The notes under the pieces are model-generated. The model was not told the DNA's origin. It made no database searches and saw only the letters and a program-made list of their open reading frames with translations. From positions 97,438,249-97,502,248 of the forward strand of contig OX352762.1 of assembly GCA_947095585.1 (NCBI GenBank): 64,000 bases of DNA, read 5' to 3'. Position numbers and translations under genes: made by a program. Below, piece after piece: positions 62,006 through 64,000 of the stretch; position 1 is the stretch's first letter; the number at the start of each line of letters is the position of its first letter. The stretch is from Nephrocerus scutellatus. Its lineage: Eukaryota; Arthropoda; Insecta; Diptera; Pipunculidae.

Positions 62006-62658
62006 ATTGGTAGCTATTCAATTCACAAATGCATCCATGTACATTTATCATTCTCATTACTGTACAGACTCAGATTTCCTGCAGCCCAATAATTTCAATC
62101 GCTGATACCAATAACATCAGCGGAAGTTACGTTGCTATGATAATAATCATCTTAATAGGCTCAATGCTACGTAATTATGTAAACATCATGCAACATCAAC
62201 TAATTTCTGCATTTATAAATATTTATCATATTACACATGTCCTACCATGTGGGAATAAAATTTGTCTAGAATTTGTTATCCGTCTCCAAAATAACCATAG
62301 GCATCCCCATTTCAGCTATCAAAAGCCCATCACGACAGCGGTCAGTACCCTTCAGAGAATCTAATTCAAATTAACTCACGCGCCGTGCACGCATGTATAT
62401 GCGATGCTTTTGAAATTAATATCGTCACGTGTTTACTGACTGTTGAATGACAATGCTGTGACAGAAAAAATAATAACATCAAATTAGTGTGGTTGTGTTT
62501 GAGTTCTTGTTGTGTGTTTTTCATTTTACGAGGATATGACACACCCAAAAGTTTGATAGTATAGCTGCCATTTTCGATGTTTGATTTCAATATAACCGAT
62601 TAGGTGTTCTAAGAAATTATTCTGCATTAGATGCTGGTTAGGTGGTAGCGGTTTCTAT
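62006..62658. other. unassigned flank of the LTR
   Basis: No gene recognised. The 111-codon frame at 62,029-62,364 has no known motif. Confidence 0.45.
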
Positions 62659-62692
62659 TGTAACGAAGTTGGTTAAATACCACTTCGCTACA
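62659..62692. repeat. hairpin at the LTR 5' edge
   Basis: TGTAACGAAGT pairs with ACTTCGCTACA with one A-C mismatch. After a bulged T, GGT/ACC closes a 5-nt loop. The GGT..ACC tip resembles the tips of the three hairpins at 63,213-63,415. Confidence 0.6.
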
Positions 62693-62743
62693 AACCATAT
62701 GTCTAAAGTAATTGCTATACAAAAACAAACCCAGTCACTCGAT

Positions 62744-62777
62744 ATATAATGCAAAATTAACCTATTTTGCATTATAT
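62744..62777. repeat. perfect 14-bp hairpin in LTR
   Basis: Arms 62,744-62,757 (ATATAATGCAAAAT) and 62,764-62,777 are exact complements with a 6-nt loop. A further 7-bp hairpin GGTTCAA/TTGAACC lies at 62,826-62,847. Confidence 0.85.
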
Positions 62778-63017
62778 CAATTTAGCGCAATACGAGTGTA
62801 CTCGGCCGGTATGCAGTACGTATAAGGTTCAATCCGGCGGTTGAACCAACGAAATTATTTTTTGCGGGAAAAGGGTTTTTCGCCCAATGAATGATAGAAA
62901 TTTATCAATGATATTATTTATAATCAAATAATTTTTCCAAAAAGGGTGAAAACAAAATTCCCAAGGAATTCAACTATTAAGACACACTTATATGCTCCAA
63001 TCAATCAACAAGAATCA

Positions 63018-63095
63018 GAATAGAACATACTACGGCACGGTAGTAAAATCTATTCAAGAGTAGACTATACTGCGGCAAGGCAGCTATACCTACTC
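63018..63095 (+). repeat. pair of covarying hairpins in the LTR, 40-nt period
   Basis: Unit 1: outer stem GAATAG/CTATTC (63,018-63,023 with 63,050-63,055), inner TACTAC/GTAGTA, loop GGCACG. Unit 2: outer stem GAGTAG/CTACTC (63,058-63,063 with 63,090-63,095), inner TATA+CTGC with GCAG+TATA and one bulge, loop GGCAAG. The outer stems differ by a compensated A-T to G-C change. Confidence 0.75.
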
Positions 63096-63212
63096 AAAGG
63101 GAAGAAAGCGTTGTGGTTCACAGCAAATTCCCCCTTTACCGACAGCTTTTCGCTGACTACTGTTCTCCACGAACAGCCCCTTTTTTGGTGACAAGGCTAG
63201 CCGAGTCATATT

Positions 63213-63415
63213 AATGTAACACGTTGCCGAGGTTGTAAAACCAGACAACTGTGCTGCATTATATACTCGTACTTTCTTTGTCTAGGTCAATATAACAAAA
63301 TTGTCAAGGTTGTAAAACCGGGCTAATTTTGTTGTGTTGTACACCCATACTTACTGTGTCTATTGCAGTATAGCGAACGATCGAGGTTGTAAAACCAGGT
63401 AGTATCGCTATATTG
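63213..63415 (+). repeat. three covarying hairpins in the LTR, exact 77-nt spacing
   Basis: The tip GGTT-GTAA-AACC starts at 63,231, 63,308 and 63,385. Stem 1: 63,213-63,226 with 63,246-63,260, 12 Watson-Crick pairs, one U-G, one mismatch, one bulge. Stem 2: 63,288-63,302 with 63,325-63,339, 13 Watson-Crick and two U-G. Stem 3: 63,366-63,376 with 63,405-63,415, 10 Watson-Crick and one G-U. The stems have little sequence in common (for example CAATATAACAAAATT and CAGTATAGCGA), while the tip and the linkers are conserved. This is evidence for selected structure, not sequence. Confidence 0.85.
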
Positions 63416-63717
63416 TAATTTACAAGACACTAAGCAGTCCGCTTGCTCCCAGTGTGGTAGCTATCCCCCGGACCTCGCTTGCTTACTCGTATAGTAATTC
63501 ACTATACCGCGCTGTTCCGTAGAACGCTGCTCGTGTGCTCTAGTAGCAACCACTTAAAGAGCAGAAGCCGCCCATCAACCCCCTTTTCCGCAGTCGAATA
63601 CTCTCGGCTGCAATCAAGTTCCCCTGGTTTCCCCGTACCGAGTACGTACAAACCAACGTATCGTAAGTTTATTTAAGTATATTTATATGTAAGTACGTAT
63701 AGACTAAGAGATCAAGA

Positions 63718-63723
63718 AATAAA
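63718..63723 (+). promoter_or_regulatory. poly(A) signal in LTR
   Basis: AATAAA about 115 bp before the LTR 3' end, a plausible R-region cleavage signal. Confidence 0.6.
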
Positions 63724-63842
63724 GAAGAATTGTAATTTTATATCGAAAACCAACAATCTTTTAATTTGTAACGACGAGCGAGAAGGAGAAAGAACCCTGG
63801 GTGACCGGCGAGCGTCACCCGAGCAAAAGACTGTTACAAATT

Positions 63843-63860
63843 TGGCGCCCGAGCAGGGAC
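63843..63860 (+). promoter_or_regulatory. primer-binding site, lysine-tRNA type
   Basis: TGGCGCCCGAGCAGGGAC differs at one base from the 18-nt site complementary to the tRNA-Lys 3' end used by lentiviruses. It starts minus-strand DNA synthesis. It lies 4 bases past the proposed LTR end. Confidence 0.85.
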
Positions 63861-64000
63861 GACTAGAATAGTCGTATCACCGTCCGACCAGAAATTAGAT
63901 AAGCATATGTATTAGATAAGCATATAATACCAGACAACTAGAATAGTTGTATCACCGTCCAACCAGCAGCTAGACAAGCCTAAAATACCATACGATTAGA
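63859..64000 (+). repeat. leader tandem repeat with covarying hairpins
   Basis: Immediately after the primer site: ACGACT-AGAAT-AGTCGT (63,859-63,875), then ACAACT-AGAAT-AGTTGT (63,934-63,950), then ACGATT-AGA cut by the window end (63,992). The loop is identical. Stem bases change in pairs (G-C to A-T). Repeat spacing is 75 then 58; the 17-nt difference equals a 17-nt internal duplication (63,894-63,910 and 63,911-63,927). The position matches retroviral packaging or dimerisation leaders. Confidence 0.8.

What the first reader, a model, noticed from the sequence alone, without database searches (positions are those of the whole stretch)
63213..63415. Three LTR hairpins with unrelated but self-complementary stems around one conserved tip
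The tip GGTT-GTAA-AACC recurs at an exact 77-nt period. The 11-15-bp stems beneath differ almost completely between units, yet each pairs with its own partner arm, with four G-U wobbles and only one true mismatch in total. Tandem duplication followed by neutral drift would leave similar, mismatched stems. Repeated compensatory change points to selection for structure, probably as RNA because wobble pairs are tolerated. The conserved tip suggests a bound protein or a loop-loop contact. I know of no such described element in Osvaldo-like LTRs.
Basis: partly seen in the sequence, partly recalled or inferred. Interest (0 to 1): 0.88.

Follow-up and report, generated by a model that had tools for sequence, protein, structure and literature searches.

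The report
Triple RNA hairpin in insect retrotransposon
A young, multi-copy insect retrotransposon carries three repeated hairpins in its long terminal repeat whose stems changed a lot yet stayed base-paired around one fixed tip, which points to a selected RNA docking element whose partner is still unknown.

Summary
Three hairpins with tip GGUU-GUAA-AACC (a GNRA loop) stand exactly 77 nt apart in the LTR of a complete, young Ty3/gypsy element. The stems are diverged tandem duplicates, not unrelated: distances are 0.35, 0.35 and 0.59, yet 48 of 51 stem cells stay paired, and 8 of 21 predicted pairs changed on both sides. Simulated drift reached that in 0 of 5000 runs per setting. Tandem repeats in three sister LTRs show no own-arm pairing advantage. 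All 45 copies examined keep the spacing and a GNRA loop; none of 65 loci from 22 sister families has the tip. Against: no compensatory pair was seen between copies and two single copies break a pair, depletion of changes in the array is not significant, and hairpin 1 folds better on the minus strand. Best reading: a family-specific RNA element selected for structure, a three-site docking array, perhaps for Gag; the function is inferred. Main rivals: another RNA role, or hairpin conversion by template switching.

The parts
62659..63838 (+). 5' LTR of a complete Ty3/gypsy-type element (second LTR at G000:C2:97508708-97509887, outside the window)
   Evidence: Second LTR 100% identical and CTAT repeated on both outer flanks
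62655..62658 (.). 4-bp target-site duplication CTAT (left copy)
   Evidence: The same 4 bases follow the second LTR
63189..63284 (+). Hairpin unit 1 with outer helix; tip 63231-63242
   Evidence: Fold and outermost pair 63190-63282
63285..63342 (+). Hairpin unit 2; tip 63308-63319
   Evidence: Fold and outermost pair 63285-63342
63350..63434 (+). Hairpin unit 3 with outer helix; tip 63385-63396
   Evidence: Fold and outermost pair 63350-63434
63843..63860 (+). Primer binding site TGGCGCCCGAGCAGGGAC (Lys type; tRNA match recalled, not computed)
   Evidence: Sequence; a one-base variant of it lies at 113 sites in the genome, 0 in the reversed control
62743..62749 (+). TATATAA, the one TATA-like word found in 62640-63900; start site not known
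   Evidence: Word scan
63718..63723 (+). AATAAA, the one poly(A)-signal word found in 62640-63900
   Evidence: Word scan
63860..63874 (+). Leader hairpin 1 CGACTA-GAA-TAGTCG (a second, separate hairpin series)
   Evidence: Fold
63935..63949 (+). Leader hairpin 2 CAACTA-GAA-TAGTTG; a third begins at 63993 and ends beyond the window
   Evidence: Fold, and the third unit read in L159

Best explanation
The array is an RNA element of the retrotransposon's transcript. A hairpin with a GNRA-capped tip was tandemly duplicated inside the LTR; the three copies then diverged, while selection kept each stem paired and kept the tip (GGUU-GNRA-AACC above a purine internal loop) and the 77-nt spacing nearly fixed. 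Shown here: structure, duplication, pairing kept beyond drift, the same spacing and a GNRA loop in 45 copies, and no such tip in 65 loci of sister families. Inferred: stems serve as spacers, and the three tips are equivalent docking sites used together. The likeliest partner is the element's own Gag, for choosing or dimerising its genomic RNA (I give this particular function about 0.35); a host RNA-binding protein acting in export, translation or 3'-end use is next.
For: Units align by sequence alone (72% mean column identity). 8 of 21 pairs changed on both sides, 3 on one side, 3 broken cells. 48 of 51 stem cells paired; 0 of 5000 drift runs reach this at each of four transition fractions; 2 of 15 tip columns vary. 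90.6% of cells paired against 27-40% when slid; covariation score reached by 8 of 500 shuffles. Own-arm folding -22.3 against -12.1 swapped; no advantage in three sister-family repeats. Stem changes are transitions:transversions 10:2, 11:1 and 17:3 against 7:5, 5:12 and 9:18 outside. The array's z is -7.2 on + and -4.4 on -. 45 of 45 arrays keep 77/77; 131 of 135 tips are GUAA and 4 GCAA. Variants in diverged copies are mostly structure-compatible: N of GNRA, U-A to U.G, an internal-loop base.
Against: Only three paralogous units carry the covariation; one shuffle measure is not exceeded (further pair types, 406 of 500) and percent paired is reached by 31 of 500. No compensatory change between copies was seen; two single-copy variants break a pair, 63251 and 63367. 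The array has 4 of 36 change events against 7.6 expected, P 0.10. Hairpin 1 is weaker and folds better on the - strand. The LTR is also the most structured stretch on the - strand. G-U against A.C is only 6 to 2. There are no transcript, binding or packaging data; the start site is unknown.
Confidence: 0.55

Rival explanations
1. The same selected RNA array, but not for Gag: a host factor binds it for nuclear export, translation, localisation or poly(A)-site choice.
For: The array lies between the one TATATAA and the one AATAAA found in 62640-63900, so it may sit in R and in both untranslated ends (inference). A mouse retrotransposon, MusD, has a structured RNA transport element (PMC3362945, passages).
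Against: Absence from 65 sister-family loci fits an element-specific partner somewhat better than a general host factor (inference). No data on either.
Confidence: 0.3
2. Hairpin conversion without selection: during replication or reverse transcription one arm is copied onto the other (template switching), restoring pairing around a stable four-base loop.
For: The mechanism is described for RNA genes and enriched at GNRA four-base loops (PMC8794818, passages). A conserved tip with changing stems is what it would leave.
Against: Stem differences are mostly transitions, as expected through G-U steps, and differ from those outside stems in two of three comparisons (Fisher 0.19, 0.001, 0.0005; the outside columns of unit 3 align poorly). 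G-U pairs and a shared internal loop persist, where copying would make perfect stems. Two diverged sister-family repeats were not so converted, though their palindromes are short.
Confidence: 0.15
3. A DNA-level element: paired inverted repeats for a DNA-binding protein, an insulator or a cruciform.
For: Both strands fold better than shuffles (z -7.2 and -4.4); hairpin 1 is better on -. Tandem repeats in gypsy-type elements can be insulators (PMC3286476, passage).
Against: Stem sequence is free while pairing is kept, unlike a DNA motif; hairpins 2 and 3 are much weaker on -; G-U outnumbers A.C 6 to 2, a weak bias.
Confidence: 0.08
4. Chance: tandem duplicates of a palindromic repeat, with no function.
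For: Several sister LTRs hold tandem repeats with small palindromic tips.
Against: 0 of 5000 drift runs per setting; flank shuffles 34, 0 and 0 of 5000; no own-arm advantage in three sister repeats.
Confidence: 0.03

Closest known systems
GACG-hairpin pair in the 5' untranslated region of murine-leukaemia-type retroviruses (Konings 1992; only the title seen, in the reference list of PMC7599994; the rest recalled)
   Same: Repeated hairpins with one fixed four-base loop in the RNA of an LTR retroelement
   Different: Loop GUAA/GCAA, not GACG; three copies at a fixed 77-nt period inside the LTR; diverged but compensated stems; insect element
RNA transport element of the mouse retrotransposon MusD (PMC3362945, passages)
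   Same: Structured cis-acting RNA of an LTR retrotransposon
   Different: Described as a kissing loop plus pseudoknot, not as three parallel hairpins; export not tested here
Tandem repeats in LTR retrotransposons, such as the gypsy 5' insulator and repeats in Culex elements (PMC3286476, passages)
   Same: Tandem units in non-coding parts of an insect LTR element
   Different: The passages seen describe DNA repeats, not compensated hairpin stems
Template-switch-generated hairpins (PMC8794818, passages)
   Same: Conserved four-base loop with correlated changes in the two arms
   Different: Here changes are mostly transitions with G-U pairs and a shared internal loop kept

Membership tests
Ty3/gypsy (Metaviridae) | Two LTRs; protease, RT, RNase H, integrase in that order | tested here: met
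   LTR pair; Pfam on two pol pieces; Retrotrans_gag
Osvaldo lineage | LTR of about 1-2 kb (997-2055 bp in Culex, PMC3286476 section 13) | tested here: met
   1180 bp
Osvaldo lineage | 4-bp target-site duplication (most rows in the table of PMC3286476; Isis-like in PMC3630058) | tested here: met
   CTAT on both outer flanks
Osvaldo lineage | PBS complementary to tRNA-Lys | tested here: inconclusive
   TGGCGCCCGAGCAGGGAC looks like a Lys PBS from memory; no tRNA sequence was compared
Osvaldo lineage | Groups with Osvaldo, Ulysses and woot in an RT/integrase tree | not tested
   No reference proteins were at hand; no tree was made
Retroviral GACG-hairpin pair | GACG loops | tested here: not met
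   131 of 135 loops GUAA and 4 GCAA in 45 copies
Retroelement packaging signal | Binds Gag and is needed for encapsidation | not testable with these tools
   No binding or particle data
Retroelement RNA transport element | Drives export of unspliced RNA | not testable with these tools
   No export data
Any described RNA family (Rfam 15) | Reaches a family's gathering score | tested here: not met
   62400-64000: one match up to E 1, on the other strand, at 15.5 bits against a cut-off of 65

The most novel reading that the evidence does not exclude
A self-made three-site RNA docking array: one family of an insect LTR retrotransposon duplicated a GNRA-tipped recognition hairpin inside its LTR and lets the stems evolve freely as paired spacers while tips and spacing stay fixed, so that its Gag (or a host protein, or receptor helices elsewhere in the RNA) binds the three tips together. 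It arose within one family and may have helped that family to spread recently.
Probability: 0.3. Interest if true: 0.72.

Novelty: new variant of a known kind. Interest (0 to 1): 0.56.

Why it matters
If true, three paralogous hairpins inside one RNA show which parts of a recognition element are fixed (tip, internal loop, spacing) and which are free (stem sequence). The family is young and near-identical in copy, so its RNA can be probed directly, and the short hairpins are ready baits for Gag or host proteins. It is also a case in which selection and template switching, two sources of compensatory change, make different predictions that can be tested.

Tried and rejected
Phage records: no match. 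PBS patterns in viral contigs: 0 loci, then 31 loci without LTR similarity. Gag piece in viral contigs: 15 stretches matched a pattern, none a relative. A window ORF as protein query: no hit. Rfam: nothing at threshold. A pattern for other tip variants in the genome: 0. Idea that sister families have compensated tandem hairpins too: one search found repeated palindromic tips in several, but their arms are near-identical or show no own-arm preference; rejected. Depletion of changes in the array: right direction, not significant. A microRNA precursor was set aside by reasoning only: here the loop is conserved and the arms vary.

Full report
WHERE IT LIES. The window is G000:C2:97438249-97502248 of a 613-Mb genome in 9 contigs. 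The LTR at 62659-63838 belongs to a complete element: a 100% identical second LTR lies at C2:97508708-97509887, and CTAT stands on both outer flanks, a 4-bp target-site duplication. A gag frame begins 380 nt after the LTR and matches Pfam Retrotrans_gag; two pol pieces give protease, RT, RNase H and integrase in gypsy order. Named gag relatives come from Photinus, Musca and Apolygus (3 named rows of 25), so the host is an insect, probably a fly (inference). LTR length, TSD and PBS type fit the Osvaldo lineage as described in PMC3286476 (section 13; passages) and PMC3630058 (passages). No phylogeny was made, and the PBS-tRNA match is recalled.

THE OBSERVATION. The tips lie at 63231-63242, 63308-63319 and 63385-63396. 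The loop GUAA is of the GNRA class (class recalled). On + the z-scores are -3.0, -5.5 and -7.3; on - they are -4.2, -1.6 and -3.4. With the tip fixed, 34, 0 and 0 of 5000 flank shuffles fold as well. The array 63185-63440 has z -7.2 on + and -4.4 on -; outer helices extend hairpins 1 and 3. By energy alone hairpin 1 is not rare (4.9% of other 64-nt windows on +), hairpin 2 is (0.19%). The most structured 1.2-kb stretches of the window start at 62465-62721 on + and at 62449-62625 on -, so the LTR stands out on both strands, more on + (mean z -0.90 against -0.53).

DUPLICATION AND COMPENSATION. MAFFT without structure gives 72% mean column identity: the units are diverged tandem copies. RNAalifold on that alignment predicts 21 pairs, 8 with both sides changed, 3 with one side changed, 3 broken cells. 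With unit 2's structure imposed, 90.6% of cells pair against 27-40% when slid; of five shuffle measures, three are reached by 8 of 500 shuffles, percent paired by 31 and further pair types by 406. Leaving out the four invariant tip pairs, 48 of 51 cells are standard; the others are A.C, G.A and C.A. Drift from a perfect stem at the observed distance gives 33-38 of 51 on average and reaches 48 in 0 of 5000 runs at each of four transition fractions. The pairs were those predicted from these sequences, which favours the observed value; the simulation has no such choice. 2 of 15 tip columns vary.

CONTROLS. Each 5' arm folds best with its own 3' arm; seen from 3' arm 1, 5' arm 3 is slightly better (-17.1 against -16.8). 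On average own arms give -22.3 and swapped arms -12.1. In three sister-family LTRs with tandem repeats the difference is -0.4 (4 units, arm identity 0.66), +1.5 (3 units, 0.61) and 0.0 (5 units, 0.87). Those repeats were picked by short palindromic tips and are not long hairpins, so they show what LTR repeats do by default rather than matching ours exactly. Stem differences are transitions:transversions 10:2, 11:1 and 17:3, against 7:5, 5:12 and 9:18 outside (Fisher 0.19, 0.001, 0.0005); outside columns of unit 3 align poorly. This fits single steps through G-U and speaks against copying of one arm onto the other, the mechanism of PMC8794818 (passages).

COPIES. The genome search scored 40 of 1501 candidates, at 99-100% identity; 30 came as loci and 10 were fetched. 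A Lys-type PBS pattern has 113 sites; I fetched 70 (30, 40), some overlapping or neighbouring. They fall into 23 groups: ours with 5 loci (93-99% identical), and 22 others with 65 loci, none with the tip. The covariance model hits only our group. The others share at most the LTR end and PBS region with ours in blastn. All 45 arrays (40 + 5) keep 77/77; of 135 tips 131 are GUAA and 4 GCAA, the latter in unit 1 (each array was read on both strands, hence 90 there). Many copies are LTR pairs of one element and not independent. Among the 40 close copies, 46 distinct variants occur in the LTR; in the array: 63202 C>T (2 copies, C-G to U.G), 63236 T>C (1, loop), 63251 G>T (1, breaks a pair), 63347 A>G (1), 63367 A>T (1, breaks a pair), 63421 T>A (15, unpaired). 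Among the 5 diverged copies, 4 of 36 events fall in the array (7.6 expected, P 0.10): 63236 T>C in three, 63248 A>G (U-A to U.G), 63320 G>A (internal loop, to the base of the other units), 63194 A>T. No compensatory pair was seen between copies. A search with a diverged copy listed 41 places, whose sequences could not be fetched.

MECHANISM. Fixed: tip, purine internal loop, spacing. Free: stem sequence. That is how a multivalent docking site with stems as spacers should look. The array lies between the one TATATAA (62743) and the one AATAAA (63718) found in 62640-63900. If transcription starts near the former, the array is in R and at both RNA ends; if later, still in the 3' end of the RNA. 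Gag recognition for packaging or dimerisation is the most economical role for a family-specific element; export, translation or 3'-end control by a host factor is next. All of this is inference. GNRA loops can dock into RNA helices (recalled); no receptor was sought.

KNOWN OR NEW. No Rfam family reaches its threshold. Nine paper searches showed, in the rows listed, no report of such an array in an Osvaldo-like LTR; most subscription papers are not held, so this is weak. The nearest known kind is the repeated hairpin with a fixed four-base loop in retroviral RNA.

VERDICT. Observation confirmed with corrections; selection on RNA structure likely; function open.

Noticed in passing
window 63860-64000 and L159 (leader after the PBS): A second hairpin series follows the PBS: CGACTA-GAA-TAGTCG, CAACTA-GAA-TAGTTG and, beyond the window, ATACGATT-loop-AATCGTAT; the stems again differ in step (no shuffle test was run). 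A stem CGACT/AGTCG next to the PBS also occurs in the sister loci L208, L212, L222, L239 and L244.
   Followed up: partly
window 63028-63085; L249 and L265 near 63016-63026: Two small hairpins about 40 nt apart, CTAC-GGCACG-GTAG and CTGC-GGCAAG-GCAG, also differ in step; copies L249 and L265 have a 40-nt insertion just beside them, perhaps another unit of the series.
   Followed up: no
window 62743-62777: A perfect 14-bp inverted repeat ATATAATGCAAAAT / ATTTTGCATTATAT overlaps the TATA-like word.
   Followed up: no
window 62659-62692: The first 34 bases of the LTR form an imperfect inverted repeat, folding well on the - strand (z -4.4 to -4.9 in overlapping 64-nt windows).
   Followed up: no
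G000:C1:49147811-49150588 (L206-L208) and G000:C3:70084306-70162928: PBS sites recur at a 1377-nt period and, on C3, at steps of mostly about 6.4 kb: tandem arrays of LTR elements or LTR-PBS units.
   Followed up: no
L265 (G000:C4:35425603 and 35425632): The LTR end plus PBS is duplicated head to tail at a 29-nt step in one copy of our family.
   Followed up: no
L205, L206, L217 (sister-family LTRs): Their LTRs hold tandem repeats with short palindromic tips at steps of 73, 108/109/74 and 97/141 nt, without own-arm preference.
   Followed up: partly
L159:3060-4181: The gag N-terminus resembles a SAP domain, below Pfam's cut-off (E 0.062).
   Followed up: no
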